Translations under genes and position numbers: made by a program
Assembly: GCF_007741475.1 (NCBI RefSeq)
Contig: NZ_CP036261.1
Span: 1,240,001-1,304,000, forward strand
DNA: 64,000 nt
DNA from: Rosistilla ulvae
Lineage (GTDB): Bacteria > Planctomycetota > Planctomycetia > Pirellulales > Pirellulaceae
Direction of reading: 5' to 3'
Notes under the pieces: generated by a model
Database searches by the model: none
What the model was told of the DNA's origin: nothing
What the model saw: the letters and a program-made list of their open reading frames with translations, nothing else
Part shown: positions 1,240-29,479 of the stretch, piece by piece
Layout of the letters: every line of letters begins with the position of its first letter
How positions within the stretch are numbered: the first letter of the stretch is position 1

Positions 1240-1250
1240 CGGTCGCTGCG

Positions 1251-2242: not shown

Positions 2243-2291
2243 TCGCCGTATTCGCGTATTTCGAATTGACCATAAACGAAGATTTGGATTG

Positions 2292-10288: not shown

Positions 10289-10338
10289 GCTCATTCCCTA
10301 ATTGCGATCAAATCGTCGCGGGAGAGTATGCTAGCTGG

Positions 10339-10776: not shown

Positions 10777-10922
10777 CCGACATTCCTGGGGGCGATTGGA
10801 GAATAAAAAATTTGTTCCCGGCGATGATACGCCGTCGATCCCTTCGGCCACCATTGCAGTTTCTTCCCCAACGCACCCTCAATGGCTACCGCATGATCTC
10901 CGGCCGCGGCAGCCGAAGATCG

Positions 10923-12554: not shown

Positions 12555-12619
12555 CGCGTAACCTCCCCACTCGACCCGAGTTCGCCCCGGGGCGGACATG
12601 GGGTCCGGCCAGAAGATCG

Positions 12620-13264
12620 CTACTCGTCGCGAGCCTTATCGATGACTGTCTTTTCAGGTTCGCCTGCACCGATGTGGTTCAGGATCTGTTGCAGTTTGTC
12701 CGCTTCTTCGGGCGAGACAAACTCCCTTAAGATCTTCTTTCGTTTGTCAGCCTGCATGGCTTTAACGATTGCAACGACGTCGTTAAGGTCACCCCCATCT
12801 AACATTCGGATCAATTGATCCTTGCTGGTCGCCGGTGGCAACGACTCCAGCGTCGACTGCAGCGACTGCATCGCTTCGTCCTGAACGCCTTGGGAAAGTT
12901 CGGCCAATTTGCGGTAGAAAGCGTCTTTTCGCGTGTCGAAACGCGATTCTTTCGATCGCAGCCGCTCCTGAACCACCTGCAATTGGTTGTAATAGTTCTC
13001 TTGGGCGCGGCGCCGCAGATCCATCTCCAGCCCATCGCGAGCCCGCTCGGCTAAGACCTCTTCGAAGCTGGGGATCGGTTCGGTTTTGGCCGCGCGAATG
13101 CTATCGGCGACCCGATCGCCCGAGATGTCGATGCCGTTCATCAGCCCCACGATCTTGGTGGTGCTGGCGGCGTTCAGGTTGCCGCGGACCGCAAGAACCC
13201 CGACGACCAACAGCTGAGTCAGCACGGTGGCGACGCAAAACGCAGCGATTCCTTTGGTTAACAT
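12620..13264 (-). CDS. MotE-like coiled-coil membrane protein
   Basis: 214 residues, with an N-terminal membrane helix (about residues 5-26: GIAAFCVATVLTQLLVVGVLAV), then a long charged coiled coil (about 85-140) and a C-terminal helical part resembling the MgtE N-terminal domain (DLNDVVAIVKAMQADKRKKILREF). This architecture matches MotE-like proteins that are commonly encoded between fliJ and fliK. MotE is a periplasmic chaperone for the MotC stator component in alphaproteobacteria; in other phyla the role is only inferred. It is three bases from fliJ, so it is surely co-transcribed. An alternative description is simply a DUF-type flagellar accessory protein. Confidence 0.75.
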   Translation of the reverse strand: MLTKGIAAFCVATVLTQLLVVGVLAVRGNLNAASTTKIVGLMNGIDISGDRVADSIRAAKTEPIPSFEEVLAERARDGLEMDLRRRAQENYYNQLQVVQERLRSKESRFDTRKDAFYRKLAELSQGVQDEAMQSLQSTLESLPPATSKDQLIRMLDGGDLNDVVAIVKAMQADKRKKILREFVSPEEADKLQQILNHIGAGEPEKTVIDKARDE

Positions 13265-13267
13265 CGA

Positions 13268-13729
13268 TTAAGTCCCACGTAAGCTATGTTCCGCCGACTG
13301 GTGCAGCACGGCGGCGACTTCGTCCATTTCGGCCTGCAGCCTCGCTTGTTCTGTGTCGCGATACGTCTGCAACGCGCGATCGCGCAGCTTTTCGATCCGT
13401 TTGACTTCTTGATCGGCTGTCTGCAGGATCAGTTCTCGTTTTCGCAATTCGACGTTGACCTGGCCGACCTGCTGCTGAAGTGTAGCTTTTTCTTGCTCGA
13501 CGAGAATTTCATGGCGTCCCTGAGCCAACAATTGGTCGACGCTGATCTTCCCCTTTAAATGGGTGCCGCGCTGCGTCTTCAGATTTTCCAGTTCGCTGCT
13601 TTTGTCGGCGATCTGCGTTTCCAGGATTCCCAACGCCTGAGTCGCGTCGGCGACGCCTCGCCGCGCCGCATCGCGCTCGCTGCAACGCAGGTTCAACAGC
13701 GAGGCGAGTCGAAATTTGAATCCTTTCAT
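13268..13729 (-). CDS. fliJ: Flagellar export protein FliJ
   Basis: 153 residues, almost entirely a charged helical coiled coil starting MKGFKFRLASLLNLR, which is the typical FliJ N-terminus. FliJ inserts into the FliI hexamer, resembling the gamma subunit of F-ATPase, and couples it to the export gate. Length fits the family (about 145-150). It follows fliI, and the motE-like gene begins three bases after its stop. Confidence 0.9.
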   Translation of the reverse strand: MKGFKFRLASLLNLRCSERDAARRGVADATQALGILETQIADKSSELENLKTQRGTHLKGKISVDQLLAQGRHEILVEQEKATLQQQVGQVNVELRKRELILQTADQEVKRIEKLRDRALQTYRDTEQARLQAEMDEVAAVLHQSAEHSLRGT

Positions 13730-13815
13730 CGCCAGGTCATCCTTGTTTGCGTTGGTTTGGGAATCGGCAAATCCGTTGCCGAGCTGTGGTTATCGTTTGG
13801 GAAACGCTGTGCGAT

Positions 13816-15144
13816 TTAGCCCGCAAGCGTTTGCATCGCCTTCATGGTGATCGCCAAGGGCGAGACCTCGTTCGATTTTTGCGTCAGGAATTGCTTCAAC
13901 ATCGGCTGCATCTCGATCGTCTTGTCGAGCTCGGGATTGGTCCCCGCGCGATAGGCTCCGATGTTGATCAGGTCTTCGTTGGTGCGGTAATTGGCCAACC
14001 ATTTGCGCAGCTGAGTCGCGGCGGCTAGCGAATTGGCCGGGATCAGTTTGGTCTGCAGACGGCTGAGGCTCTCCAGGACGTCGATCGCCGGCCAGTGCCC
14101 TTCGGATCCGAGTTTGCGGCTGAGGAAAAAGTGGCCGTCGAGTAATCCACGCAGGTTGTCGCTGATCGGTTCGTTGTTGTCGTCACCGTCGACCAGGACG
14201 GCGTAAAACGCGGTGATCGAACCACGCTCGGTGCGACCCGATTGCTCGACCAACTTGGGCAGCGTCGAGAAGACCGACGGCGGATAGCCGCGGGTTGTGG
14301 GAGGTTCGCCGACCGCCAGACCGATCTCTCGCTGAGCGGTTGCAAAACGGGTGATCGAATCCATCAACAGGACGACGTTTTTGCCTTGGTCGCGAAGCGC
14401 TGTCGCGATCGCCGTCGCGGTCCAAGCCGCTTGGATCCGCATCGTTGCCGGTTGATCGTTGGTCGAAACGACAAGCGTGCTGCGAGCCATTCCCTTTTTG
14501 CCCAACGTGTGCTCGATGAACTCGCGGACCTCGCGTCCACGCTCGCCGATCAATCCGATCACGACAGCATCGGCTTTGGAGTTCTTGGCTAGCATGCCCA
14601 TCAGGGTACTCTTGCCGCCACCGGCTCCGGCAAAGATGCCCAGCCGTTGTCCGAGCCCGCAAGTCAGCAGCCCATCGATCGAACGGATCCCCGTTTCGAA
14701 GACGGTCTCGATCGGCGGTCGATCCAACGACGCGGGCGGTTCCATGTTGATCGAGGTGGACGTCAGCGAAGCGGGCAGCGGGCGTCCGTCCAATGGGCGG
14801 CCCAGTGCGTCGACGACGCGGCCGATCAGCCCCTCGCCCAATCGCAGGTTCACGCTGTGGCTCTGCAGTTCGACCGGATCGCCCGACGAGAGAGCTGATA
14901 ATTCATCCATCACCGCCAGGATCGGCGAATCGTCGCGGAAGCCGATCACCTTGGCAGCGCCCTTTTGCCCGCTGCGGGTGTGGATCGTGCAGATCGAACC
15001 GACGGGCACGCTCAGCCCGCGGACCTCGACCCGATTACCGACGATCGCATGGACCGACCCGACGACGCGGCCGTCGATCGAATTGCGGATCGTCTGGCGG
15101 TAATCGTCGGCTTTCACCAGTTCGGGGAAGGGAGCGTTCTTCAT
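13816..15144 (-). CDS. fliI: Flagellum-specific ATPase FliI
   Basis: 442 residues, the standard FliI size. Walker A GAGGGKST is at residues 173-180, followed by the GERGREVREF segment typical of FliI/F1-beta-like ATPases, and LLMDSITRFATAQREIGLA with the Walker B aspartate. The enzyme energises flagellar protein export with FliH and FliJ at the cytoplasmic side of the basal body. The N-terminal beta-barrel domain occupies the first 95 residues. It starts at ATG 15144, 64 bases after the fliH stop. Confidence 0.96.
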   Translation of the reverse strand: MKNAPFPELVKADDYRQTIRNSIDGRVVGSVHAIVGNRVEVRGLSVPVGSICTIHTRSGQKGAAKVIGFRDDSPILAVMDELSALSSGDPVELQSHSVNLRLGEGLIGRVVDALGRPLDGRPLPASLTSTSINMEPPASLDRPPIETVFETGIRSIDGLLTCGLGQRLGIFAGAGGGKSTLMGMLAKNSKADAVVIGLIGERGREVREFIEHTLGKKGMARSTLVVSTNDQPATMRIQAAWTATAIATALRDQGKNVVLLMDSITRFATAQREIGLAVGEPPTTRGYPPSVFSTLPKLVEQSGRTERGSITAFYAVLVDGDDNNEPISDNLRGLLDGHFFLSRKLGSEGHWPAIDVLESLSRLQTKLIPANSLAAATQLRKWLANYRTNEDLINIGAYRAGTNPELDKTIEMQPMLKQFLTQKSNEVSPLAITMKAMQTLAG

Positions 15145-15208
15145 GCGTTTTCCATTGGCTGCGGTCGCTTCCCGGGAAGGGATTGCGTGGGGACGGTTTC
15201 CGCCCGAT

Positions 15209-15901
15209 TCATTCTTCTTCGCTTTGCAGGCCCAGGTGTTGGGCGAGTTTTTCTAGTTGTGTCGATAGTTGTAAATCGATGTGTCCGCCCTCTTGGCGGA
15301 CCACGACGCCCATCGGTTCGACTGCTTCGTCCGGTTCGATGTGCGTTTCCTGAGGCAGGCCGGGGCGGCGGACGACGCGATCGAGTTGTTGCCCCAAGAC
15401 GCTTAACGTTTCCGGGTGGACGGCCAGCGTGATCTTCCTCGCTCCGCGGACTGCATCGAGCGCTTCGTTGGCCCATCCCAGCAGGATCTCGTCGTTTTGG
15501 TTGATCGCATTGCGAGTCAGCTTTTGTGCGACTTCAAATGCGATCTCCAGCGTGTTCTGTTGCCACTGTTGCAACCAATCGTTTTCCGTTTCCCACAGCT
15601 GATCGATCGCCGATTCGAGCGTTGCCAAGCGGCTGTGGACCGCCGAATCGACAGCGACTTTGACCCGCTGGTCGATCACTTCGTTGGCCTCTTTCAGTCC
15701 CTCTTCGCGACCGGCTTCGCGAGCTTGCTGTTGGATCGCTTCGGCGTCGGCATGCGCTTGCTTGATGATCGCCGCGGCGGTTTGTTGAGCCCGTGCGACT
15801 TCTTGCGACGCGCGATTGGCAAAGTCGTCGAGATTAAACCCAGCCACGCCCGAGAAGCCAGGATCCTGTTTGCCCGATTTGGATTTCAGAATGGTCGACA
15901 C
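15209..15901 (-). CDS. fliH: Flagellar assembly protein FliH
   Basis: 230 residues starting at GTG 15901. The middle region (about 33-80) is an Ala/Glu/Gln-rich helix, and the C-terminal half carries the FliH/HrpE pattern WLQQWQQNTLEIAFEVAQKL and ...VHPETLSVL. FliH binds FliI as a dimer and regulates and positions the ATPase. The call rests on this pattern and on the position between fliG and fliI. No strong ribosome binding site is visible, and the start could differ by a few codons. Confidence 0.88.
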   Translation of the reverse strand: MSTILKSKSGKQDPGFSGVAGFNLDDFANRASQEVARAQQTAAAIIKQAHADAEAIQQQAREAGREEGLKEANEVIDQRVKVAVDSAVHSRLATLESAIDQLWETENDWLQQWQQNTLEIAFEVAQKLTRNAINQNDEILLGWANEALDAVRGARKITLAVHPETLSVLGQQLDRVVRRPGLPQETHIEPDEAVEPMGVVVRQEGGHIDLQLSTQLEKLAQHLGLQSEEE

Positions 15902-15946
15902 GGTCGGTTACTCGATGGAATGGGTTAAAGGAGGCAAACGCTTCGC

Positions 15947-17068
15947 TTACGCGGCGAAACTCATTCGCGAGGGAGCCGACGCTGGCAGATGCAATTCGGG
16001 CAGCTTGCCGGCGTCGTGTAATTGCATCGCCGCGTCGTACAGTTCGCGTTGGCTGGCATCGATCTGACGCAATTCGACGTTGTCGATCTTCCGCATCAGA
16101 TCTTGCACCTCGCGGCGTTGGTTGCGAGGCAGGATCGTCAGCAACCGCTGGACGACGCGCGGGTCCATCCCGCACAACGACAGGATCGCGGTGTCGACCT
16201 CGACCTCCAACAGCACGCGGCGGAGCGCATCGGCGGGCAAGCGTTCGATCGGGGCAAAATCGATGGGCGTCGGTTCGCTGTCGAGATCTAGGTGCAATTC
16301 ATCGACGACCTCTGCCGATTCGATCGCTCCCGAATCCCATTCATCCAGCTGCTGCGGTGGCTCTGGCGGCGCCGAATCCACGGGAGCAACGGGCTCTGGC
16401 GGCAACGATGCAGCGAGATCGGGCAGTTCGGAGAGAATCTGTTTGCGTTGGTCGAGGTCCAGGTGCGTCAGGATCGAGGCGAGCGAGCGGCTGCCCGCTT
16501 GCGGTTCGGCTGGCGTCACCTTTTTCATCAACGATTGCAGGTGCTCGCTGATCTCCTGCAACGCTTGGCTGGGGATCTCGGTGATCGCGGCCAGTCGTTG
16601 GATCGCAGATTTACAGACCGATGTCGGCAGGTCGGCCAGCAGTTGAGCGGCGACCGACGGTTGCATCGAAGCCAGCACGATCGCAACGGTTTGCGGGTGT
16701 TCGTCCGACAGGGCGCTGACGAGCGCACGGATCGGCATCTCGTTCAGGAAGTGCAGCGGGTCACGCGATTCGGCTTCTTCTTCGGCGGAGTTCTCCGCTG
16801 GCGAAGAGGTTGTAGTGGCGGGAACTGCCGCGGCGGTGGGCTCAGGGGCGACGGGGGTAGGCCGCGAAGCCGTGGCGTTCTGGGACTTCTGCATGAAGTC
16901 GGCGATCGCCATCTTCCGTTCCAGCGGGTCGATTCCGGACAGTTGTGAGATTGCGTACCGAACCTGAGCCGCTCGCGATGGGGGCATCTTGGCCAGCAAC
17001 TGGGACGCCGTGACCTGATCGAGACTGTCCAGCAAGACAGCGACGCGACGAAGCGAACCCTGATCCAC
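15947..17068 (-). CDS. fliG: Flagellar motor switch protein FliG, divergent
   Basis: 373 residues from the GTG at 17068, which has GGAGGG seven bases upstream; a TTG at 17098 is possible but badly spaced. The N-terminal FliG motif LRRVAVLLDSLDQVTASQLLAKM is present. The middle domain has DEHPQTVAIVLASMQPSVAAQLL, the ARM-like EHPQ motif of FliG. The C-terminal part has ALRRVLLEVEVDTAILSLCGMDPRVVQRLL. FliG forms the C-ring rotor that contacts the stators. Two Pro/Ala/Glu-rich linkers (about 65-100 and 205-265) make it longer than the usual 330-345. It is the first gene of the operon; fliF, normally its neighbour, is not in this window. Confidence 0.88.
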   Translation of the reverse strand: MDQGSLRRVAVLLDSLDQVTASQLLAKMPPSRAAQVRYAISQLSGIDPLERKMAIADFMQKSQNATASRPTPVAPEPTAAAVPATTTSSPAENSAEEEAESRDPLHFLNEMPIRALVSALSDEHPQTVAIVLASMQPSVAAQLLADLPTSVCKSAIQRLAAITEIPSQALQEISEHLQSLMKKVTPAEPQAGSRSLASILTHLDLDQRKQILSELPDLAASLPPEPVAPVDSAPPEPPQQLDEWDSGAIESAEVVDELHLDLDSEPTPIDFAPIERLPADALRRVLLEVEVDTAILSLCGMDPRVVQRLLTILPRNQRREVQDLMRKIDNVELRQIDASQRELYDAAMQLHDAGKLPELHLPASAPSRMSFAA

Positions 17069-17682
17069 AACCAATCCCTCCGATGAATAGACAAGCAAAC
17101 ACAGAAAAGCTTATAGCGAGCCGAGCTCGATGGCGGAAGAGAAGTTGCGGGGAGGGTTTGAGTGTTGGGGAGCTTGGGGATGGTTTGGGGGTGGGCAGTC
17201 TCCGGAGCTTTATCAACGCAGAGTCCAGTCGCGAGCAATGGAGAACTGTTTGCCAGCCCCCTGCCCGTGCGATTTAGGGCCATCGGGCAAACCCTCACAC
17301 AACTGACTCGCGCCGGGCCGACGAATCGAAAAAAATGCGAAAGTTTTTGCTAGCATAACAATTGGTGTCGTCTGGCCGAGTCGCGGTCTCGTGCTAGCAA
17401 ATGTTCCAGAGAATTCCAGCTCGGCGACGAGCTGAAAGCGTTGCAAGGTGGGGGGAGACAAAAGGGCCCCATGTGAGTCAAAACCTTTATAAAACGGGGG
17501 AGCTGCCAATCTGCTCACTTGACATTTGCACATGCTCGGCAATAACTTACAAGGACAGCCATTGCATCCATCGTTGCTTGCCAATGGTCCCGCAGAAACA
17601 GCATGTTATGCAATGAGATTTGCAGCACGACGTTCCTCTCCAACGTCTTTTTTATCCATGCGTCCCACGATAAGGATATCTA
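17069..17682. other. Intergenic region with possible flagellar operon promoter
   Basis: 614 bases between the divergent fliG and BON-domain genes, with no credible coding frame. On the minus strand, TATAAG (17111-17116) lies about 43 bases before the fliG start and could be a -10 box, but the -35 position reads only TTCCGC. No sigma-28 or sigma-54 consensus was found. The sequence GCTAGCA occurs twice, near 17349-17355 and 17392-17398. Confidence 0.35.
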
Positions 17683-20089: not shown

Positions 20090-23000
20090 TTGGATGCTCG
20101 ACTCAAAGATCTACTGGAATCGGTTGCCAGTCGCTTGCGCCGTCAGCGGTTGCTGTGGCTGTTAGCAGCGGTCTGGCTGGCGACAGCTTTCGTTGCCCTC
20201 TCGTTGCTGTGGCAGGTCCGCAGCGGAGAGCTTTCCGCGAACGTTGCTCTTGGCGTGGCGGCGGCTACGCTGGGCGGACTGTTGGTCGCAGCCTGTGCTT
20301 TGAGTCTCTGTTCGTTCCGCGATTCCAAAGCTGTTGCCGCACGGATCGAAGCCCACTTTCCCACGCTGCGACAACGCTTGTTGACCGCTGTCGATCAACG
20401 CCCCGCCGACATCAACACGCCGATGAACTATCTGCAGACGGCGGTGATCGATGAGACGCTGCACCATGGCACGACGCATCGGTGGACATTGGCCGTCAAT
20501 CAAATAGCAACGCGTTTTGCCTGGTCCGTTAACGCGTTGGCGTTTGGGTTGCTGCTGTTGGTTGGGATCGGGTTGAATTCTCAGCTGGCAAACGCCAAGC
20601 ACCACGGTACCGATCCGGCCTCGCTCTCGGAACTGCAGCCGTCGGCACAGCTCACCGTCGAGCCGGGGGATGTCGAAATTGAACGTGGCAGCAACCTCGT
20701 CGTCACCGCTCGGTTCGGAGCCAATGACCTGGGGATGTTGCCCAGCGATGTTCAGTTGATCGCTCGCCGTGGTGACCAGCAGACGCAGTCCGCGATGACG
20801 CGGAACCTGAGTGATCCCGTCTTCGGTGGCTACCTGAACGAAGTGGTCGAGTCGACGACTTACGAAGTGCAATACGACGGCCAGGTTTCGCCGACATATA
20901 GGGTCACCGTCTTTGATTACCCTCAGTTGCAGCGATCCGACGCGCGGCTGGTCTTTCCGCAATACACGGGACTCGAGGAAAAGCGAGTCGACGACACCCG
21001 GCGTGTCAGCGCCGTCGAGGGGACTCAGCTGACCTGGATCTGCCAGCTGAACAAACCGGTCGCTAGTTGCACGTTGGTCGATGATGAGGGCGAAGTCTTG
21101 CCATTGTCAGCCGACGCGGAGAACCCGTTGCACTATCGGGCAACGGTGACGCTTCAGCAATCGACCCGTTGGACGTTGAAGTTGGTCGACGCCGAGGGAC
21201 GCGAGAACAAATATCCGCCCGAACTGGTAGCGCGCGTTCAGCCCAATCAACCGCCGGTGATGAAATTGGTCGCCGCCCGCGACGTCCGCGTCTCGCCGTT
21301 GGAAGAGCTGCAAGTTGGGGCTCGGTTTCGCGACGACTTCGGTCTGTTGCGATATGGGCTCGCCTATGCGATGGCGGGGGAGGAGCCGCACGAGATCGTG
21401 CTTGGGGAAACGACGCAGCGAAAAGAGGAGCGTGAAGCGTCGCCGATGATCGACTTCGAAGCTCTCGCTGCCGAACCCGATCAATTGTTGTCGTACCATT
21501 TTTGGGCCGAGGATTTTGATGCCGCAGGTCAGCCGCGGCGATCCGAAAGCGACATGTACTTCGCCGAAGTCCGGCACTTCGAAGAGATCTTCCGCGAAGG
21601 AGAACCGCCCGCTGGCGGCGAGCCACCTCCTTCGAGTCCCAACGCGCAACAAGCCGACGAACTGGCGGAATTGCAAAAGCAGATCATCACCGGAACTTGG
21701 AACCTGATCCGCCGCGAAACCGCTGCGGAACCGTCGGCTGCTTTTGCGGACGACGTCGCGTTGCTGCACGAATCGCAACAGGCGGCGATCGAACAACTGC
21801 AGGAGCTGGCGGCGGAGCTGACCGATCCGCAGTCGAAAGAATATGTGCAGGCGGCCGAAGCGTTCATGCAGAAAGCTGTCACGCAATTGGCGGCGGTCGC
21901 CGATGCAAACTCCCCTCCCCTGCTCTCCCCCGCGTTAGCATCGGAGCAAGCGGCTTATCAAGGGCTGCTGAAACTGAGGGCTCGCGAATTCGAAGTCTCT
22001 CGGCAACAGCAATCGCAATCGAAATCGAGCAGTTCGTCGCAACAGCAACGCCAACAACAGTTGGATCAACTGGAACTGAAGAACGACGAAAACCGGTACG
22101 AAACCGAACAGCAGGCCCGTTCCGAAGAGGAGCAACAAGCGACCGAGATGCGGCAGGTGTTGAACCGATTGCGCGAACTCGCTCAGCGGCAAGAGGACCT
22201 CAACAAGCAATTGAAGCAATTGCAGTCGGCACTCGAAGCTGCTCAGACCGAACAGGAACGCGAGGAGATTCAACGGCAATTGAAGCGGCTTCGCGAAGAG
22301 CAGCAGGAGCTGTTGCGCGACACCGACGAATTGGCTGATCGGATGAATGCCTCGCAGGATCAACCGGCTACGGCAGAGCAACAGGAACAGCTGGCTGAGA
22401 CACGCGAGAACGTACGCCAGTCGAGCGAAGCGTTGGCGCAGCAGGATGTCTCGCAGGCGTTGACGGCGGGCACGCGAGCGGAACGCGAGTTCAAGCAGAT
22501 GCGGGATGAAGTGCGGCAGCAGGCGGCGGGCGATTTCGCCGAATCGATGCAGCAGATGCAACAACAGGCTCAACAGTTGCAAGAGCAACAGCAAGCGATC
22601 GGCCAGGAGATAGAACAGCTGGAGGAGACGAATCCCGGATCGCTGCGAAGCCCGCAGGATCGCGATCAGATTCGCGATCGGATCGGTCAGCAACGCCAGC
22701 AGCTTGCCGATTTGCTAGATCGCATGGAGCGAACGGTCAGCGATGCAGAGACCTCTGAACCGCTGTTGGCGGAAAAACTGTACGACTCGTTCCGCAAGAC
22801 ACAACAACGCCGCGTCGATCAGCAGTTGGATATGACCAACCAGCTGCTCGAACGGGGACTCGATCCCGACGCGAGTCAGGCGACTGCGGCGGCCGAAGCC
22901 GGAATCGGTGAGTTGCGGGAAGAGATCGACGAAGCCGCTCAAAGCGTCCTCGGCGACCCAACCGAAAGCTTGCGGCGAGCGCTCGGCGAATTGGAGCAAG

Positions 23001-23941
23001 TCTCGGATCAGTTGAGCGATGAAATTCGGGAGAACGATCCGCGTGGAGCGGAGTTGGGAGATGGGGGGCCGGGAGATGGGGAGCCGGGAGATGGGGAGCC
23101 GGGAGATGGGGAGCCGGGAGATGGGGAGCCGGGAGATGGGGAGCCGGGGCAGTCACAACCTGGTCAATCACAACCTGGTCAGTCGCAACCTGGTCAGTCG
23201 CAACCTGGTCAGTCGCAACCTGGTCAGTCGCAACCTGGTCAATCACAACCTGGTCAATCACAACCTGGTCAATCACAACCTGGTCAGTCACAACCTGGTC
23301 AATCACAACCTGGTCAGTCGCAACCTGGTCAGTCGCAACCTGGTCAATCACAACCTGGTCAATCACAACCTGGGCAGTCACAACCTGGGCAGTCACAACC
23401 TGGGCAGTCACAACCTGGGCAGTCACAACCTGGTCAATCACAACCTGGTCAATCACAACCTGGTCAATCACAACCTGGGCAGTCGCAACCTGGACAGTCG
23501 CAGCCGGGACAGTCGCAGCCGGGACAGTCGCAGCCGGGGCGTGGGGGAAGTGGTGGTGGAATCGAAGGGTTTGCGGAGGCAGTGGAAGGACGTGGTGCGG
23601 CACCGCTGACAGGTGAAGGTTTCCGTGAGTGGAGCGATCGGTTGCGGGAGATTGAAGAGCTGGTCGAAGATCCCGAGTTGCGATCGCAAGTTGCTCAGGT
23701 TCGCGAAGCGGCTCGCGAGGTCCGGATCAATTTGAAGCGGCACAGCGAGTCGCCGCAATGGAACTTGGTTCGCGAAATGATCGCTCGTCCGCTGGAAGAA
23801 CTCAAGCAACGCGTCGCCGAAGAACTGCTGCGGCGGTCGGCTGATCGCAACGCATTGGTGCCGATCGATCGCGATCCGGTCCCCGTCGAATTTGCCGATC
23901 AGGTCGAAAAATATTACGAGAAGCTAGGCAGCGGTAAGTAG
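20090..23941 (+). CDS. Large membrane-anchored coiled-coil protein with pentapeptide repeats (DUF4175-like)
   Basis: 1283 residues, starting at TTG 20090 with GGAGGG eight bases upstream. Three hydrophobic helices (about residues 20-45, 55-80 and 140-165) anchor it. The rest is predicted outside the membrane: a beta-rich region (about 180-500), long Gln/Glu-rich coiled coils (about 640-940), then 32 tandem pentapeptides (990-1149) and a helical C-terminus. The layout resembles DUF4175 proteins of Proteobacteria and Planctomycetes, known only as hypothetical membrane proteins. It is the first gene of a three-gene operon with the von Willebrand protein (80 bases downstream) and the caspase-fold protein. 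A structural or scaffold role in the envelope is inferred. Confidence 0.85.
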   Translation: MDARLKDLLESVASRLRRQRLLWLLAAVWLATAFVALSLLWQVRSGELSANVALGVAAATLGGLLVAACALSLCSFRDSKAVAARIEAHFPTLRQRLLTAVDQRPADINTPMNYLQTAVIDETLHHGTTHRWTLAVNQIATRFAWSVNALAFGLLLLVGIGLNSQLANAKHHGTDPASLSELQPSAQLTVEPGDVEIERGSNLVVTARFGANDLGMLPSDVQLIARRGDQQTQSAMTRNLSDPVFGGYLNEVVESTTYEVQYDGQVSPTYRVTVFDYPQLQRSDARLVFPQYTGLEEKRVDDTRRVSAVEGTQLTWICQLNKPVASCTLVDDEGEVLPLSADAENPLHYRATVTLQQSTRWTLKLVDAEGRENKYPPELVARVQPNQPPVMKLVAARDVRVSPLEELQVGARFRDDFGLLRYGLAYAMAGEEPHEIVLGETTQRKEEREASPMIDFEALAAEPDQLLSYHFWAEDFDAAGQPRRSESDMYFAEVRHFEEIFREGEPPAGGEPPPSSPNAQQADELAELQKQIITGTWNLIRRETAAEPSAAFADDVALLHESQQAAIEQLQELAAELTDPQSKEYVQAAEAFMQKAVTQLAAVADANSPPLLSPALASEQAAYQGLLKLRAREFEVSRQQQSQSKSSSSSQQQRQQQLDQLELKNDENRYETEQQARSEEEQQATEMRQVLNRLRELAQRQEDLNKQLKQLQSALEAAQTEQEREEIQRQLKRLREEQQELLRDTDELADRMNASQDQPATAEQQEQLAETRENVRQSSEALAQQDVSQALTAGTRAEREFKQMRDEVRQQAAGDFAESMQQMQQQAQQLQEQQQAIGQEIEQLEETNPGSLRSPQDRDQIRDRIGQQRQQLADLLDRMERTVSDAETSEPLLAEKLYDSFRKTQQRRVDQQLDMTNQLLERGLDPDASQATAAAEAGIGELREEIDEAAQSVLGDPTESLRRALGELEQVSDQLSDEIRENDPRGAELGDGGPGDGEPGDGEPGDGEPGDGEPGDGEPGQSQPGQSQPGQSQPGQSQPGQSQPGQSQPGQSQPGQSQPGQSQPGQSQPGQSQPGQSQPGQSQPGQSQPGQSQPGQSQPGQSQPGQSQPGQSQPGQSQPGQSQPGQSQPGQSQPGQSQPGQSQPGQSQPGRGGSGGGIEGFAEAVEGRGAAPLTGEGFREWSDRLREIEELVEDPELRSQVAQVREAAREVRINLKRHSESPQWNLVREMIARPLEELKQRVAEELLRRSADRNALVPIDRDPVPVEFADQVEKYYEKLGSGK
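23057..23536 (+). repeat. 15-bp coding minisatellite, 32 units (GDGEP then GQSQP)
   Basis: Six units of 15 bp encode GDGGP and five GDGEP (23057-23146), followed by 26 units encoding GQSQP (23147-23536). Units differ almost only at synonymous positions (ggt/ggg/gga, cag/caa, tcg/tca, cct/ccg), and identical variants cluster in runs, which points to expansion by slippage or unequal exchange. The reading frame is kept throughout. Confidence 0.97.
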
Positions 23942-24021
23942 TTTTTAATCATTTCCATCCTGCTTGCTTCGTTCATCCAATCCGTGGTCGCGAGACGTGT
24001 CCCAGCTAGTATAAGTTGTTT

Positions 24022-26376
24022 ATGTTCGATTCGATTCTGATCGCCGCTCCGCAATGGACAGCTCCCGCCGTGGCAATCTGCCTGTTGTCGCTGATTGTCG
24101 TGGCGTGGGCCTATTGGCGTCGTGGGGGATCGTCACGGCGCGGGCCGCTGATTTTTGCGGGGCTGCTGAAATGGATCGCGATCGCCGCTCTCGCGTTATG
24201 CCTTTTGCAACCGATGCTAGAAAGTCAGCGTCCGCGACCGCATGCGAACCTGATCGGCGTGGTCGTCGATAACAGCCGCAGCATGCAGATCCGCAGCCCC
24301 GGTCAATCGCAGCCGCGCAGCGAACGATTGGCCGCGGTCTTAAAACAGGATGCGGATTGGCAGGTTCGGCTATCGCAAGATTATGACGTGCGACGCTATG
24401 CTTTCGATCGCAGCTTGCAAAACGTCGACGATCTATCGACGCTGGAATTCGATGGCGCATCGTCGTCGCTGACGGGCACGCTAACGACGTTGGCCGCGCG
24501 GTTTCGCGATCGTCCCGTCGCCGGACTGATGCTGTTCACCGACGGGAACGCAACCGATCTGACCGACACCGGATTCGATTGGTCCTCGCTCGGCTTTCCT
24601 CTTTATCTGGTCACCGATTCGGTCGATCAAGCGATCGCGGACCTCAAGATCGATCAGGTCAGCACCGCCCAAACCAACTTTGAAGCCTCCCCGGTGACGG
24701 TGACTGCGAAGCTGTCCGCCACCGGTTTAAAAGAGTCGACTGTTGTCGTCCGCTTGCTCGATGCGGAGGGCGTTGCGGTGGAAGAACAGGAGGTGGAATT
24801 GACGCAGGCGAAGCCGACCGCCGACGTCGAGTTCCGCTTCCGCCCGAAGAAATCGGGACTGCAGTTCTATTCGATCGATACGTTTCCCAAATCGCAACGG
24901 GTTGCCTATTCGCAGGGCGAAACGAAGGTGGAAGCGACGCTCGCGAACAATTCGCGATTGCTGGCGATCGATCGCGACCAAGGTCCCTATCGTGTGCTGT
25001 ACGTCGCGGGGCGACCGAACTGGGAATTCAAATTCCTGCGGCGGGCACTGCAGGAGGATGATGAAATCCGCTTGGTGGGACTGTTGCGAATCGCTCGCAA
25101 AGAGCCCAAGTTCAGCTTCCGCGATCGCGGCGTCAATTCTTCCAATCCGCTGTTTTCGGGGTTCGATGAAAACGAAGAGGAGAGTGCCGAGCAGTACGAT
25201 GAACCGGTGCTGTTGCGATTGGGCGTCGATGAAGCGGAACAACTGAGTAAAGGTTTTCCGCGCCAAGCCGAGGAGTTGTTCGGATATCACGCGATCATCT
25301 TGGACGACGTCGACGCCGATTTTTTTACGCAGGATCAGATGCTGATGTTGCGGCAATTCGTCAGCACTCGCGGCGGCGGCCTGCTGATGCTCGGCGGCCA
25401 GGAATCGTTTGCTGGCGGTGATTACGAACACACGCCGTTGGCCGATCTGATGCCGGTCTATCTGCCTCGCGGCAATGAGTCTTCGGGCGGAACGGTCGCC
25501 CGGATGGAACTGTCGCGCGAGGGTTGGCTGCAACCGTGGCTGAGGTTGCGGGAGACGGAAGTCGCTGAAAAGAAACGCTTGGCCGAGATGCCGGAGTTCG
25601 GCACGCTCAACCGCGTCGGCGATGTGAAGCCGGGGGCGTCGATGTTGGCATCTGCCCAAACGGGCGATCGCCAGCAACCGGCACTTGTCGTCCAGCGCTA
25701 TGGCAAGGGAAGGTCGGGGGCGCTGTTGATCGGCGATTTGTGGCGATGGGGGATGCGGCGGAAGCCTGGCGAAAACGAAGACTTGCAGCAGGTCTGGCGG
25801 CAGACGATTCGTTGGATGATCGCCGACGTGCCGCGCGCCGTCGAGATCGATCTCGAGGAATCCAAGGACAGCAGCAAGCCGATCGAGCTCGCCGTGACGG
25901 TTCGCAATCCGGAGTTTCTGCCGTTGGATAACGCTTCGGTCGCCCTGACGGTGGTGCAGCCCGACGGCGAAGAGATGCAATTGCCGACGCAGCCCAGCGA
26001 CCAAGCCGCCGGAGTCTACACCGCCAGCTATTGGCCCAGCAAAGATGGAGCCTATCGCGTGAAAGTTGTCGCGACGGGGCCCGATGGCAGCGACATCGGC
26101 AGCCAGCAGGCCGGTTGGACTACTGAAACGGCGACCGCCGAATTCCAGCGGCTTGCCGTCAATAAGGACTTGTTGCAACAGATCGCCGATCAAACTGGAG
26201 GCGAAGTGATTTCGCAGGACGACCTCGATTCGTTTGTTGCGAATTTGCACAACAAGAAGATTCCGCTGACCCGGCGGCATCTCGCTCCGCTGTGGCACGG
26301 TCCGTGGGTTTTGATCTTCGCCCTAGCCTGTTTGTGTGGCGAATGGGGCGTCCGCCGTTTTCATGGGATGCCCTAA
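24022..26376 (+). CDS. Membrane protein with von Willebrand and glutamine-amidotransferase-like domains
   Basis: 784 residues from the ATG at 24022. Two membrane helices open the protein (about residues 10-28 and 44-64). Then comes a von Willebrand-like domain whose MIDAS motif reads VVDNSRSM (DxSxS), and a class I glutamine-amidotransferase-like region (VLYVAGRPNWEFKFLRRAL ... ILDDVDADFFTQDQM ... GGGLLMLGGQESF). One C-terminal helix (GPWVLIFALACLCGEWGV) follows a beta-sandwich-like stretch. The architecture is typical of BatA/DUF1355-type proteins in Planctomycetes. It lies 80 bases after the coiled-coil protein and 60 before the caspase-fold protein. The amidotransferase-like part shows no obvious catalytic Cys-His pair and is probably structural. 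Confidence 0.85.
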   Translation: MFDSILIAAPQWTAPAVAICLLSLIVVAWAYWRRGGSSRRGPLIFAGLLKWIAIAALALCLLQPMLESQRPRPHANLIGVVVDNSRSMQIRSPGQSQPRSERLAAVLKQDADWQVRLSQDYDVRRYAFDRSLQNVDDLSTLEFDGASSSLTGTLTTLAARFRDRPVAGLMLFTDGNATDLTDTGFDWSSLGFPLYLVTDSVDQAIADLKIDQVSTAQTNFEASPVTVTAKLSATGLKESTVVVRLLDAEGVAVEEQEVELTQAKPTADVEFRFRPKKSGLQFYSIDTFPKSQRVAYSQGETKVEATLANNSRLLAIDRDQGPYRVLYVAGRPNWEFKFLRRALQEDDEIRLVGLLRIARKEPKFSFRDRGVNSSNPLFSGFDENEEESAEQYDEPVLLRLGVDEAEQLSKGFPRQAEELFGYHAIILDDVDADFFTQDQMLMLRQFVSTRGGGLLMLGGQESFAGGDYEHTPLADLMPVYLPRGNESSGGTVARMELSREGWLQPWLRLRETEVAEKKRLAEMPEFGTLNRVGDVKPGASMLASAQTGDRQQPALVVQRYGKGRSGALLIGDLWRWGMRRKPGENEDLQQVWRQTIRWMIADVPRAVEIDLEESKDSSKPIELAVTVRNPEFLPLDNASVALTVVQPDGEEMQLPTQPSDQAAGVYTASYWPSKDGAYRVKVVATGPDGSDIGSQQAGWTTETATAEFQRLAVNKDLLQQIADQTGGEVISQDDLDSFVANLHNKKIPLTRRHLAPLWHGPWVLIFALACLCGEWGVRRFHGMP

Positions 26377-26436
26377 AGCAAAACGCGTTGGATGCATGGT
26401 TCGCAAATCCCGAAACTCGACAAGACAGAGACACCT

Positions 26437-27450
26437 ATGATTCGTCGTATCCCTTCGCTGGCTTGCTTGATTGCGGTGTTGATGTTGGTTCGCGTCGCCC
26501 GCAGCGACGACGCTCCCCCTGCTCCGCCGCAGGTGTTGGTCGTTGTGGGAGCCGGCGGCAGTGAAGAGTATCAGACAGCGTTTGCGACTTGGGCCGATCG
26601 CTGGAAATCGGCGGCTGGTTTGCTGGACGGGGCGAGCTATCATGAGATAGGTCGCGAAGAGGGCCAGAGCGATTCGAGCGACAAGGATCGCTTGAACGAG
26701 CGATTAGCGGAACTGAGCGATTTAAAAGCCGAAGCGGTTTGGATCGTGTTGATCGGCCACGGCACGTTCGACGGCAAGGCGGCGAAGTTTAATCTTCGCG
26801 GACCCGATGTTTCGGCGGAGGAGTTGAGCGGCTGGATCGAGCCGATGCGGAGTCCTTTGGTTGTGGTGAATTGCGCGTCGGCGAGCGGTCCGTTTATCAA
26901 TCGATTGTCGGCCGCGGGACGGACGATCGTAACGGCTACCAAAAGTGGGCAGGAGCAGAACTTCGCTCGCTTCGGCGATTATCTCTCGCAAGCGATTTCG
27001 AACATCGCCGCCGATCTGGACCATGACGATGAAGTCTCGCTATTGGAGGCCTTCCTGAGTGCGTCGAATCAGGTTGCCAAGTTCTATGAAGCGGAGAACC
27101 GAATCGCTACCGAACATGCGTTGATCGACGACAGTGGCGATCGCTTGGGAACGCCGGCGACGATGTTTCAAGGGACCACGGCGGTCGCGGTTCCTCAGAC
27201 CAAGGCGGCTCGCGACGGTGGCGTTGCCGCGCGGCGGGTGATCTTTCAATCGGCCCAGGCGGTTGTGCTGACCCCGGCGCAGCGGGAATCACGGGCGGCG
27301 ATCGAAGCGGAGATTGATCGATTGAAGCTGCGAAAATCGGAACTCGCCACCGATCAGTACTTCGCGCAACTGGAACCTTTGATGCTTCAGCTGGCGGAAC
27401 TGTACGCCGCCGCCGAAGCGGAGGACTCGAACGAATCGCAGCGCGAATGA
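26437..27450 (+). CDS. Secreted caspase-fold (clan CD) protein
   Basis: 337 residues from the ATG at 26437, with signal peptide (hydrophobic SLACLIAVLMLV, cleavage near ARSDD). The core fits the caspase/legumain/gingipain fold: strand plus VWIVLIGHG with His108, then RSPLVVVNCASASG with Cys146, the catalytic dyad spacing expected in clan CD. The segment TIVTATKSGQEQNFARFGDYLSQAI after it resembles the substrate-pocket strand and helix of peptidase C13-like proteins. A helical C-terminal part (about 280-330) is charged. It closes the operon begun at 20090. Whether it is an active protease, and on what, is unknown; the fold assignment is from motif pattern only. Confidence 0.7.
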   Translation: MIRRIPSLACLIAVLMLVRVARSDDAPPAPPQVLVVVGAGGSEEYQTAFATWADRWKSAAGLLDGASYHEIGREEGQSDSSDKDRLNERLAELSDLKAEAVWIVLIGHGTFDGKAAKFNLRGPDVSAEELSGWIEPMRSPLVVVNCASASGPFINRLSAAGRTIVTATKSGQEQNFARFGDYLSQAISNIAADLDHDDEVSLLEAFLSASNQVAKFYEAENRIATEHALIDDSGDRLGTPATMFQGTTAVAVPQTKAARDGGVAARRVIFQSAQAVVLTPAQRESRAAIEAEIDRLKLRKSELATDQYFAQLEPLMLQLAELYAAAEAEDSNESQRE

Positions 27451-27620: not shown

Positions 27621-27962
27621 TTAAGAAGCCACGCCGTTCAGTTGAGCACTGCCCCATTGGGGTGTGAACTCAGACTCCATGTCTTCCAGGAAAAGCTTGC
27701 CATCGACCAGCACACGCGTGTTTGATGCTGCAAAGATTGCATGCGCGGCGCGGCGTAAATGCGCGTCGACAACTGAAATGTCGAGTTTACACTTGGGTAC
27801 AAAGAAGAAGCTTCCCGAGCGGTCGAGTCCCGACGCTTGGATCTGCTTGCGGATGAAACCGCGGACCTCGGTGACCAGAATCCGGTGGACACCAATTTCC
27901 TCCAAAGCGGCGTTAACCTCTTCGAGGTGTTCCGCGTCGATGATTGCTTCTATTCTTTTCAT
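27621..27962 (-). CDS. PII-like signalling protein with altered T- and B-loops
   Basis: 113 residues from the ATG at 27962. The fold signature MKRIEAIIDAEHLEEVNAALEEIGVHRILVTEVRGF is that of GlnB/GlnK, as are VPKCKLDISVVDAHLRRA and DGKLFLEDME. In canonical PII the T-loop carries Tyr51 for uridylylation and the B-loop reads TGxxGDGK. Here the T-loop (about 36-54) has no Tyr51 equivalent and is one residue shorter, and the B-loop is NTRVLVDGK. Binding of ATP/ADP and 2-oxoglutarate may therefore differ. No ammonium transporter or glnA is adjacent. It lies 161 bases downstream of the TPR-glycosyltransferase gene, on the same strand. Confidence 0.85.
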   Translation of the reverse strand: MKRIEAIIDAEHLEEVNAALEEIGVHRILVTEVRGFIRKQIQASGLDRSGSFFFVPKCKLDISVVDAHLRRAAHAIFAASNTRVLVDGKLFLEDMESEFTPQWGSAQLNGVAS

Positions 27963-28123
27963 CCGATTCCTATCAAGGTTATTAAAGCCGACCTGCTTGT
28001 CGGGCTGGAGTTTATTTGCCTGACGCATTGAGCAACTGGCGTGCCAGTTGCGACGAAAGTGCTTTTTTTGTTCTGTATTGCTGCGAAAGCTTGCATTCTC
28101 AGCGTCCTTCGCGAGTCGTTGCG

Positions 28124-29479
28124 CTAAAACCGTTCTAGGTGAAGCTTGATTTCTGCCATCACGGCAGCCCAATTTTTCATCTCGGGCTGTCGGGATAGCC
28201 GCATCGAGGGGTACCAGGGGCTCGATTCTCCCTGCAGCAACCACCGCCAATCGGGGACCTTTGGCAGTCCGACCCAGACTGGTACTCCCAGGGCTCCGGC
28301 GAGATGAGCGACCGAAGTGTCGCTGGTCACGACCAGGTCTAAGCCTTTCATAATCGCTGCGGTATCCATAAAGGCACCGCTGGACTGGTCGAGGTTCGCT
28401 GGCAATCGGACGATTTGGTCGGCAAAGTCGACTTGATCAAGCTGCTGGATCCCAAATCCGTGCTGCAGGCAGACGAGTTGCACGTCGGGAATCGATGCCA
28501 ATGGTTCAAAGGCTTGCAGCGGAATCGATCGGAAGATGTCGGCTTGGTGCTGCGGATTCCCCTGCCAACAGATCCCTACCTTTTTCTTGCCGGGGATCTG
28601 GGCGAGCCAGTTTGCCCAGTAGGCTTGCAGGTTTTCCGACGGCCCGAGATAGGGGCCGACATCGGGAATCGACTCCGCATCGATCCCCAGCCGATCGGCG
28701 GCGTCGATAAAGGAGCAATGGAAATCGAAGTTCCCCGGCAGCATCCCCTCGGGAATCAGTTGGTCGATGCCGCGGCATGTGCTCAGCAGCGGGATCAACT
28801 TGGGAGCCGCCTGAACGATCGTTCGCGCCCCACGCTCCTTGAGGGCGATCGCCATCCGCACAAAATGGATCGCGTCCCCGAGTCCCTGTTCCGAATAGAG
28901 CAGGAATGTTTTGCCTTGCGGGGCGCTGCCATCCCAGACTGGTTGGGAGACGTTGGGGCGAACGAAGCCGGGCATCTTCCAACGCCAGCGGTATTCGTCC
29001 CAGCCGCGGCGGAAGTCTCCCTTCAGCAGGTGGATGACGCCGAGATTGCGATGCAGTTCGGGATCGTTCGGAGCGACCTCGAGGCTTGCTTCGAATGCCG
29101 CCAGGCCGCGATCGATCTGCCCGGTCCAGACCCACAGCGTGCCGCGGTTCTTGAGCGGGCTGAGATACTTTGGGTCCTGCTGCAGCGAGGTTTCGAATGC
29201 TTGGTCGGCTTGTTCGACCTGCCCCAGCATCCGCAGCGTGTTGCCGAGATTGTTCCAGGCGATCGGGAAGTGGTTTTGTAGCGACAGCGCCTTGCGGTAT
29301 GCCGCTTCGGATTCTTCGAAGCGGCGTTGGTCGTACAACGCAATTCCCAGGTAGCACCAACCGGCGGCCGAACCGGGAGCTTGCTGTAGGACGTGCCGGT
29401 AGACTTTTTCGGCGGCGGCGTAGTTCCCCTGCTGCTGGATTGTCCAGCCTTGGTTGAGAACCTCTTGGACGGTTGGCAT
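28124..29479 (-). CDS. TPR protein with C-terminal glycosyltransferase-9-like domain
   Basis: 451 residues from the ATG at 29479 (MPTVQEVLNQG). The first 180 residues form about five tetratricopeptide repeats (for example GNYAAAEKVYRHVLQQAPGS, PIAWNNLGNTLRMLGQVEQA). The C-terminal half has the heptosyltransferase-like pattern, KKVGICWQGNPQHQADIFRSI and DLVVTSDTSVAHLAGALGVPVWVGL. Such TPR-GT9 fusions are common in Planctomycetes and are usually left as hypothetical glycosyltransferases. The acceptor is unknown. It lies downstream of rpoD, but a strong terminator separates them, so it has its own promoter. Confidence 0.85.
   Translation of the reverse strand: MPTVQEVLNQGWTIQQQGNYAAAEKVYRHVLQQAPGSAAGWCYLGIALYDQRRFEESEAAYRKALSLQNHFPIAWNNLGNTLRMLGQVEQADQAFETSLQQDPKYLSPLKNRGTLWVWTGQIDRGLAAFEASLEVAPNDPELHRNLGVIHLLKGDFRRGWDEYRWRWKMPGFVRPNVSQPVWDGSAPQGKTFLLYSEQGLGDAIHFVRMAIALKERGARTIVQAAPKLIPLLSTCRGIDQLIPEGMLPGNFDFHCSFIDAADRLGIDAESIPDVGPYLGPSENLQAYWANWLAQIPGKKKVGICWQGNPQHQADIFRSIPLQAFEPLASIPDVQLVCLQHGFGIQQLDQVDFADQIVRLPANLDQSSGAFMDTAAIMKGLDLVVTSDTSVAHLAGALGVPVWVGLPKVPDWRWLLQGESSPWYPSMRLSRQPEMKNWAAVMAEIKLHLERF

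What the first reader, a model, noticed from the sequence alone, without database searches (positions are those of the whole stretch)
20090..27450. Three-gene envelope operon ending in a caspase-fold protein
A 1283-residue anchored coiled-coil protein with 32 pentapeptide repeats, a von Willebrand/amidotransferase-like membrane protein, and a secreted clan CD (caspase-like) protein with His108 and Cys146 are encoded on one strand with gaps of 80 and 60 bases. MoxR-DUF58 and von Willebrand clusters are known in Planctomycetes, but I do not know a described system joining them to a secreted caspase-fold protein. It could be an envelope-associated proteolytic complex. The operon and motifs are seen directly; the joint function is inferred.
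Basis: partly seen in the sequence, partly recalled or inferred. Interest (0 to 1): 0.72.

Follow-up and report, generated by a model that had tools for sequence, protein, structure and literature searches.

The report
Dead legumain-fold partner of Bat operon
In planctomycetes and some verrucomicrobia, a membrane-protein operon of a known kind (MoxR/Bat) comes with a secreted protein that has the shape of a protein-cutting enzyme but has lost its cutting residue, so it probably serves as a docking part rather than a protease.

Summary
The three genes are real: A 20090-23941, B 24022-26376, C 26437-27450, gaps 80 and 60 bases. They are the tail of a larger cluster, TPR - DUF4159 - MoxR - DUF58 - BatA - A (DUF4175-like) - B (MIDAS motif, GATase1_like) - C, contiguous in relatives and split over three places in this genome. 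C has the legumain (C13) fold. In three genome sets B and C occur in the same 53 of 497 genomes, with neither alone at the level of full-length orthologues, also in seven genomes where they are unlinked. The proposed catalytic dyad is wrong: His108 is invariant (66 of 66), but Cys146 (38 of 66) is not the nucleophile. The Cys of nine C13 homologues falls on residue 148, which is Ser in 59, Ala in 6, Pro in 1 and never Cys. C also keeps an EF-hand-like acidic loop. Best reading: C is an obligate, non-proteolytic, probably calcium-binding secreted partner of a Bat/MoxR-type envelope module. Two sister B-C pairs with the Cys in place suggest descent from a protease. Complex, calcium binding and envelope role are inferred. 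New variant of a known kind.

The parts
20090..23941 (+). Gene A, 1283 aa: N-terminal hydrophobic segments, DUF4175-like region, Gln/Glu-rich coiled-coil-like middle, low-complexity linker, conserved C-terminal segment
   Evidence: DUF4175 E 0.007 in the window protein, below the Pfam cut-off, and matches at E <= 0.01 in 15 of 22 orthologues; orthologues 35-53% identical
23057..23536 (+). 32 tandem pentapeptides (GDGGP, 5 x GDGEP, 26 x GQSQP) in A, residues 990-1149
   Evidence: GQSQP found in 3 of 29 A proteins compared, those of this genus (26, 17 and 24 copies); the others have other P/G/Q/E/S-rich stretches
24022..26376 (+). Gene B, 784 aa: two N-terminal hydrophobic segments, VWA-like region with MIDAS-like residues, GATase1_like domain, Ig-like segments, C-terminal hydrophobic segment
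   Evidence: GATase1_like over the Pfam cut-off and in 31 of 31 orthologues; D83 and S85 31 of 31, S87 28 of 31, D174 31 of 31
24268..24282 (+). B residues D83-N-S-R-S87, MIDAS-like DxSxS
26437..27450 (+). Gene C, 337 aa: signal-peptide-like N-terminus, legumain/caspase-fold domain, C-terminal helices
26758..26760 (+). Codon of C His108 (position of the catalytic His of C13 peptidases)
   Evidence: 66 of 66 orthologues; aligned with the C13 His in 9 of 9
26872..26874 (+).
   Evidence: C 38, T 14, A 7, G 6, S 1 of 66
26878..26880 (+). Codon of C Ser148 (position of the catalytic Cys of C13 peptidases)
   Evidence: the C13 Cys falls here in 9 of 9 sequences with three MAFFT settings and by hhalign; S 59, A 6, P 1, C 0 of 66
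27013..27048 (+). C residues 193-204, DxDxDxxxSxxE loop (EF-hand/dockerin-like, possibly calcium-binding)
   Evidence: D193 66, D195 65, D197 64, S201 65, E204 66 of 66; loop leading into helix 202-219, with helix 173-186 before it, in the model
27127..27144 (+). C residues 231-236, DD(N/S)GD(G/R), second acidic loop
   Evidence: D232 65, D235 65 of 66

Best explanation
A-B-C is the 3' part of a Bat/MoxR-type envelope module: TPR protein - DUF4159 - MoxR AAA+ ATPase - DUF58 - BatA (VWA) - A (DUF4175-like membrane protein) - B (membrane protein with a VWA-like MIDAS motif and a GATase1_like domain) - C. C is an exported legumain-fold pseudopeptidase: it keeps the catalytic His and the fold, has Ser (or Ala/Pro) where the catalytic Cys should be, and keeps an acidic EF-hand-like loop. 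Proposed mechanism (inferred): C works outside the cytoplasm as a non-cutting, probably Ca2+-stabilised docking or recognition subunit that binds the outward-facing parts of B (VWA or GATase-like region) or A. The MoxR ATPase with DUF58/BatA remodels this membrane assembly from the cytoplasm, as NorQ does with its VWA partner NorD, in the service of envelope integrity or maturation of envelope proteins. Shown: cluster, export-like N-terminus, fold by prediction, lost nucleophile, invariant His and acidic loop, co-occurrence with B. Inferred: physical complex, calcium binding, envelope role.
For: Fold. Lost nucleophile: profile comparison with nine C13 homologues, probability 99.7%, E 5e-27; their Cys falls on 148 and their His on 108 in 9 of 9 under three alignment settings; eight of the nine are over the Pfam C13 cut-off, and L151 aligns its ACYSG motif with legumain's ACESG. 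Position 148 is never Cys in 66 orthologues, and five of the 50 sequences (L046, L064, L067, L077, L078) show no Cys at all (L078 has a masked stretch). Co-occurrence: B and C in the same 33 of 60 relatives (sets compared), the same 17 of 246 genomes of the phylum, the same 5 of 194 of G308's phylum. C lies within 0.8 kb downstream of B on the same strand in 46 of these 53 distinct genomes and is unlinked but still present in 7 (coordinates). Cluster: MoxR and DUF58 upstream of A-B-C on the same strand in 22 of the 51 loci examined; BatA, DUF4159 and TPR genes identified in L051. In this genome the closest MoxR-DUF58 (75% and 61% identical to L051's) and BatA lie together at 7.7-11.6 kb and TPR-DUF4159 at 1.07 Mb.
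Against: Ser148 with His108 is present in most orthologues (Ser 59 of 66), so a serine-type activity cannot be excluded by sequence; Ala or Pro in 7 of 66 argues against it. Two distant C relatives next to distant B relatives (L126, L130) do have Cys at 148, so proteolysis may exist in sister modules. Exceptions to co-occurrence, outside the three sets: of the 16 genomes behind L031-L046, G306 (L034) has C but only weak partial B matches and G309 (L037) has no B match at E <= 1e-40. Co-occurrence counts and the 66 sequences are not corrected for shared ancestry, and some of the 66 are close relatives. Pfam C13 matches the window protein below its cut-off (15.5 against 22.8 bits) and only 6 of 50 members at E <= 0.1. 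Foldseek TM-scores are modest (about 0.40 by query for the best rows). L051's MoxR matches the conflict-system model bpMoxR over its cut-off (41.8 against 27 bits). No physical interaction, calcium binding or phenotype was tested.
Confidence: 0.58

Rival explanations
1. C is an active clan CD cysteine peptidase using His108 and Cys146 and cleaves envelope proteins.
For: Legumain fold; Cys146 in 38 of 66; export-like N-terminus.
Against: Cys146 lies two residues before the homologous nucleophile position in 9 of 9 comparisons; the fewest changes for Cys146 present or absent on the tree of 66 is 11, on a quick tree with 40 of 63 inner branches open, while C is kept wherever B is kept in the sets; some orthologues show no Cys at all.
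Confidence: 0.1
2. C is a hydrolase or transferase that uses Ser148 in place of Cys, with His108.
For: Ser148 in 59 of 66 and His108 in 66 of 66.
Against: Ala in 6 and Pro in 1 of 66 at 148. Recalled: Cys-to-Ser changes normally kill caspase-fold enzymes; the abstract of PMC6426788 reports tyrosine and serine in place of the His-Cys pair in pseudo-orthocaspases, presumed inactive by its authors.
Confidence: 0.12
3. The module is a conflict (anti-phage or self/non-self) system of the MoxR-vWA kind with a caspase-like effector.
For: MoxR-vWA ternary conflict systems with caspase domains are described in PMC7159879; [quoted passage not shown] L051's MoxR and the window's other MoxR match the bpMoxR model over its cut-off (41.8 and 54.2 against 27 bits).
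Against: The same MoxR proteins match the general AAA_3 model far better (211 and 215 bits). C has an export-like N-terminus; the partners in L051 are BatA, DUF58, DUF4159 and a DUF4175-like protein, a Bat-type make-up, and DUF58 does not occur in that paper's main text. The gene order is the same across many genera.
Confidence: 0.12
4. C is only a hitch-hiker in the operon with its own unrelated secreted function.
For: In seven genomes of the 60 relatives C lies away from B.
Against: In all seven, C is still present, and C is absent from all 27 of the 60 relatives that lack B.
Confidence: 0.08

Closest known systems
Bat (Bacteroides aerotolerance) operons and the Rhizobium leguminosarum RL3499-RL3502 (cmdA-cmdD) operon
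   Same: MoxR, DUF58 and BatA/VWA membrane proteins in one cluster; R. [quoted passage not shown] the original paper is not held).
   Different: The cluster here adds a DUF4175-like protein with a long low-complexity linker, a MIDAS-motif/GATase1_like protein and the legumain-fold protein C; whether the Rhizobium operon has counterparts of these was not tested.
Peptidase C13 (legumain, GPI8) family
   Same: Fold, His position and motif region, and a downstream DDNGDG-like segment seen in several bacterial C13 homologues.
   Different: Nucleophile Cys replaced by Ser, Ala or Pro in 66 of 66; window protein below the Pfam cut-off.
Pseudo-orthocaspases of cyanobacteria and alphaproteobacteria (PMC6426788, abstract and section list read)
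   Same: Caspase-fold protein with Ser at the nucleophile site, presumed inactive.
   Different: Those also replace the His by Tyr; C keeps the His, is nearest to legumain and belongs to a MoxR/Bat cluster.
MoxR-vWA ternary conflict systems (PMC7159879, passages read)
   Same: MoxR and vWA proteins coupled to caspase-like domains, often inactive; bpMoxR model matches over its cut-off.
   Different: Different partner genes; C has an export-like N-terminus.
NorQ/NorD (PMC13036017 and PMC9976466, abstracts and section lists read)
   Same: MoxR ATPase acting on a VWA partner to remodel a membrane protein; used here as the mechanistic analogy.
   Different: No DUF58, BatA, DUF4175-like or caspase-fold protein is mentioned in the abstracts.

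Membership tests
Peptidase C13 / clan CD cysteine peptidase (as an active enzyme) | Caspase/legumain fold | tested here: met
   AlphaFold2 model pLDDT 85.3; legumain 4nol Z 17.7, rmsd 2.7, 191 aligned
Peptidase C13 / clan CD cysteine peptidase (as an active enzyme) | Catalytic His | tested here: met
   His108 66 of 66, aligned with the C13 His in 9 of 9
Peptidase C13 / clan CD cysteine peptidase (as an active enzyme) | Catalytic Cys at the end of strand 4 | tested here: not met
   Residue 148 is S 59, A 6, P 1, C 0 of 66; hhalign pairs the same residues
Peptidase C13 / clan CD cysteine peptidase (as an active enzyme) | Pfam C13 match over the cut-off | tested here: not met
   window protein 15.5 against 22.8 bits; 6 of 50 members match at E <= 0.1
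Peptidase C13 / clan CD cysteine peptidase (as an active enzyme) | Proteolytic activity | not testable with these tools
   needs purified protein
Bat/MoxR-type operon | MoxR ATPase and DUF58 genes | tested here: met
   adjacent in 22 of 51 loci; present but unlinked in this genome
Bat/MoxR-type operon | BatA-type membrane protein with VWA | tested here: met
   L051 BatA PF07584 E 2.9e-16 and VWA; orthologue in this genome at 9.5-11.6 kb
Bat/MoxR-type operon | Role in envelope integrity or aerotolerance | not testable with these tools
   no mutant data for these organisms
VWA protein (gene B) | MIDAS residues DxSxS ... S/T ... D | tested here: met
   D83, S85, S/T148, D174 in 31 of 31, S87 in 28 of 31
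VWA protein (gene B) | Match to VWA profile or fold | tested here: inconclusive
   PF00092 in 1, VWA_2 in 1 and VWA_CoxE in 2 of 31; model pLDDT 70.3, Foldseek rows with TM near 0.1 and rmsd mostly near 28
Glutamine amidotransferase (gene B) | GATase1_like domain | tested here: met
   over the cut-off, 31 of 31 orthologues
Glutamine amidotransferase (gene B) | Conserved catalytic Cys | tested here: not met
   no Cys among the invariant or nearly invariant columns of 31 orthologues
DUF4175 (gene A) | Pfam DUF4175 match over the cut-off | tested here: inconclusive
   window protein 14.9 bits against 27.3; 15 of 22 orthologues match at E <= 0.01, best 7.3e-08
MoxR-vWA ternary conflict system | bpMoxR match of the MoxR protein | tested here: met
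   L051 MoxR 41.8 against 27 bits; AAA_3 211.3 bits in the same protein
MoxR-vWA ternary conflict system | Third conflict component (VMAP or iSTAND) beside MoxR and vWA | not tested
   not searched with a model; the neighbours identified in L051 are of the Bat kind

The most novel reading that the evidence does not exclude
An exported caspase-fold pseudoprotease has been turned from an enzyme into an obligatory receptor or adaptor subunit of a MoxR/Bat envelope machine across two phyla, with sister modules (distant B next to C relatives such as L126 and L130) that still carry an active-type protease, so that a protease-armed and a disarmed form of the same AAA+/VWA machine can be compared.
Probability: 0.4. 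Interest if true: 0.7.

Novelty: new variant of a known kind. Interest (0 to 1): 0.55.

Why it matters
MoxR/Bat modules are widespread and their job is still poorly defined. A secreted subunit that is inherited with the module, has a well-understood fold and lacks the catalytic Cys gives a concrete handle: it points to recognition outside the cytoplasm, and sister modules with an intact cysteine offer a natural comparison. It also corrects a tempting annotation (secreted caspase-like protease) that would mislead.

Tried and rejected
Rejected: Cys146 as nucleophile; the window's own MoxR-DUF58 pair at 190-2138 as the partner of A-B-C (55.8% and 35.6% identical to L051's against 74.8% and 61.0% for the pair at 7.7-9.3 kb); the Extensin_1 match of A as anything but low complexity; chance adjacency.

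Led nowhere: sequence search of the PDB with C alone or with profile A2 (best E 1.1 and 0.12); NCBIfam on C (no family at E <= 1); Foldseek of the B model (mostly beta-galactosidases and other glycosidases, TM near 0.1); promoter and terminator scan (3 promoter-like sites against 1.8 in shuffles; 14 terminator-like against 8.9, sd 3.0; none taken as evidence). Search of C in the phylum of G318 (L046's genome): 19 of 299 genomes matched, only G318 itself strongly (263.5 bits; the next 43.9). Papers: the listings of searches showed no paper that joins DUF58/Bat-type MoxR clusters to a legumain- or caspase-fold secreted protein; these are listings of an open-licence library, and those of 47, 63, 78 and 80 were cut at 15 of 48, 10 of 307, 8 of 3,903 and 8 of 15 papers.

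Rows dropped before counts: the set of 66 leaves out L079-L081 (distant paralogues, Pro at 148 by their loops) and the repeats L109, L110 and L138, and never held L044 (a verrucomicrobial relative like L037, left out of A1) or L055 (same contig as L032). L046 and L078 are long branches and were kept; L045 and L078 have masked letters. Distant relatives L125-L137 and L143-L146 were not counted as orthologues. Co-occurrence counts use, C matches over 350 bits (17 of 29 genomes with a match) and, B matches over 900 bits (241 of 246 genomes have some B-like match, since GATase/VWA paralogues are common). At the looser B limit of 1e-80 used, adds seven genomes (G115, G120, G169, G199, G203, G228, G289), each of which has some C match, in G120 a weak one (35.9 bits) and in G120 and G203 on other contigs. 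One search counts 5 of its 9 matches as strong.

Full report
What is there. The three open frames are as described: A 20090-23941 (TTG start, 1283 aa), B 24022-26376 (784 aa) and C 26437-27450 (337 aa), with gaps of 80 and 60 bases. C's His108 and Cys146 are counted from ATG 26437. The 32 pentapeptides of A are real (31 in an uninterrupted regular run, plus one GDGGP before it). GQSQP occurs in 3 of the 29 A proteins compared, those of this genus (26, 17 and 24 copies); most others have other P/G/Q/E/S-rich stretches towards the same end, so the repeat looks like a fast-changing linker and not a defining feature.

Surroundings. In this genome A-B-C stands between a divergent sulfatase and, downstream, genes on the other strand for a P-II-like protein, a TPR protein and an RpoD-type sigma factor. 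In relatives the same three genes are the tail of a larger cluster. The loci of the window's genus (L047, L048) and L056 have 7-8 kb upstream of A without them; many other loci were cut by contig or locus ends before that point or hold C without A-B. In L051 and L054 the order is a large protein (872, 840 aa), a small one (281, 280 aa), MoxR, DUF58, a 702 or 707 aa protein, A, B, C; Pfam names L051's first five as TPR with peptidase MA, DUF4159, AAA_3, DUF58 and BatA with VWA. In the window's genome these are split: MoxR-DUF58-BatA at 7.7-11.6 kb and TPR-DUF4159 at 1.07 Mb, each the best match to L051's genes among the loci fetched. The MoxR-DUF58 pair at the start of the window is a different, less similar pair. 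The window's taxon is not told; one genome of its family (G017) has the same contig as L032, a record titled Planctomycetaceae bacterium, so it is taken as a planctomycete.

Fold of C. AlphaFold2 with 16 sequences gave mean pLDDT 85.3 and pTM 0.81. Foldseek's best PDB match is the SAVED-CHAT protein (E 1.2e-6, TM 0.40 by query) with caspases and legumain close behind; realignment puts legumain first (4nol, Z 17.7, rmsd 2.7 over 191 residues, 14% identity), with metacaspase 4 tied and GPI transamidase lower. The caspase-fold prediction is therefore right, and legumain (C13) is the nearest solved kind, although Pfam C13 stays below its cut-off for the window protein and matches only 6 of 50 members at E <= 0.1.

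The active site. On 66 aligned orthologues His108 is invariant and Cys146 is present in 38 (T 14, A 7, G 6, S 1); the fewest changes for Cys146 present or absent on a quick tree is 11, but 40 of its 63 inner branches are open. The 66 are not independent: some are close relatives, such as the three of the window's genus and nine of one verrucomicrobial group. Nine more distant homologues with a C13-type motif were compared with the family; eight are over the Pfam C13 cut-off and L131 is below it. hhalign gives 99.7% and E 5e-27, with the C13 Cys of the sequence shown opposite Ser148 and a gap opposite Cys146; three MAFFT settings put their His on 108 and their Cys on 148 in 9 of 9; L151 aligns its ACYSG with legumain's ACESG. 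So the nucleophile position is 148, and it is Ser in 59, Ala in 6, Pro in 1, Cys in none. Five of the 50 sequences (L046, L064, L067, L077, L078) show no Cys at all; L046 and L078 are long branches, and L078 has a masked stretch. By its own criterion the proteolytic reading fails for Cys146.

What is conserved instead. D193, E204 and E226 are invariant, D195, D197 and S201 nearly so: an EF-hand- or dockerin-like DxDxDxxxSxxE loop that leads into a helix of the model, with a second acidic loop at 231-236. Dockerin_1 matches one member weakly (E 0.013). Calcium binding is inferred. The loop is also seen in two C13 homologues with a normal Cys (L131, L135), so it may be an old feature of this branch.

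Co-occurrence. B and C were sought in three sets. Relatives: C in 33 of 60, B at E <= 1e-80 in 33 of 60, and the two sets are identical. Phylum: 17 of 246 strong C and 17 of 246 strong B, identical. Phylum of G308, the genome of verrucomicrobial locus L036: 5 of 194 strong C and 5 of 194 B, identical. After removing overlaps (G000, G019, G052) that is 497 genomes, 53 with both, none with one alone at this level. In 46 of the 53, C lies within 0.8 kb downstream of B on the same strand (in G058 with two short frames between); in seven (G012, G013, G018, G030, G032, G033, G040) it lies elsewhere and is still present. Fisher tests are extreme but ignore shared ancestry, and the level was set by score (over 350 bits for C and 900 for B in the second set). 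Results against: of the 16 genomes behind L031-L046, 14 have a strong B match, whole or in pieces; G306 (L034) has only weak, partial ones and G309 (L037) none at E <= 1e-40. In L037 C sits near the start of a 3.3 kb contig.

Sister pairs. Distant relatives of B and C also lie within 1.1 kb of each other on the same strand in G063, G115, G169, G199 (two places), G228 and G289 (coordinates). At residue 148 these C relatives read Ser (L125, L127), Cys (L126, L130), Pro (L132, L137) and Gly (L133). L126 and L130 keep the His as well. So C relatives with both residues exist beside B relatives, and the window's group looks like a disarmed descendant; the direction is inferred. L081 (G029) is a second, paralogous MoxR-DUF58-A-B-C cluster in the same genome as L065.

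B and A. B has a GATase1_like domain over the Pfam cut-off, in 31 of 31 orthologues, without a conserved Cys, and a MIDAS-like motif (D83, S85, S/T148, D174 in 31 of 31). VWA profiles match only a few members, and the model of B (pLDDT 70.3) gave no useful fold match. A is DUF4175-like: below the cut-off in the window protein, matched at E <= 0.01 in 15 of 22 orthologues.

Mechanism. The likeliest reading is a Bat/MoxR membrane machine whose exported part includes a non-cutting legumain-fold subunit. MoxR ATPases act on VWA partners to remodel membrane proteins (NorQ/NorD: PMC13036017, PMC9976466, abstracts and outlines). Cells with defects in the related Rhizobium operon have envelope changes, as told in PMC5700661 (passages). 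Complex formation, calcium binding and envelope role are inference. MoxR-vWA conflict systems with caspase domains, about 70% of those in the effector position inactive, are the main conceptual rival (PMC7159879, passages), and L051's MoxR does match the bpMoxR model of those systems over its cut-off; the partner genes and the export-like N-terminus of C speak for the Bat kind.

Novelty. The Bat/MoxR module, the C13 fold and pseudo-caspases are each known. The listings of searches of an open-licence library showed no paper that joins them in this way; some listings were cut, and the library is not the whole literature. I rate it a new variant of a known kind.

Noticed in passing
window 190-4751: A second MoxR-DUF58 pair, followed by a glycogen (carbohydrate) phosphorylase gene (2196-4751); it is not the closest counterpart of the MoxR-DUF58 that accompanies A-B-C in relatives. 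The genome has 14 DUF58 and 16 AAA_3 matches at E <= 0.001.
   Followed up: partly
window 7853-17098: Flagellar genes on the - strand (FlgE-type hook protein, FliK, FliG by Pfam; a FliI-like ATPase at 13816-15144 by inspection only) between the MoxR-DUF58 pair and A-B-C.
   Followed up: no
window 23057-23536: Pentapeptide repeat with two blocks (GDGEP then GQSQP); copy number differs among three congeneric species.
   Followed up: partly
window 27621-28250: P-II-like protein at the C-terminal end of a 209-residue frame; the true start is probably internal (P-II match from residue 97).
   Followed up: no
L126 and L130: Distant C relatives next to distant B relatives that keep both His and Cys at the C13 positions: candidate active proteases of a sister module.
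   Followed up: partly
L081 (G029) 1145-14353: Second, paralogous MoxR-DUF58-A-B-C cluster in a genome that also has the standard one; its C relative has Pro at position 148.
   Followed up: no
L046: B-C pair in a contig binned as a Nevskiaceae (gammaproteobacterial) MAG; the C protein there shows no Cys. Transfer or mis-binning not resolved.
   Followed up: no
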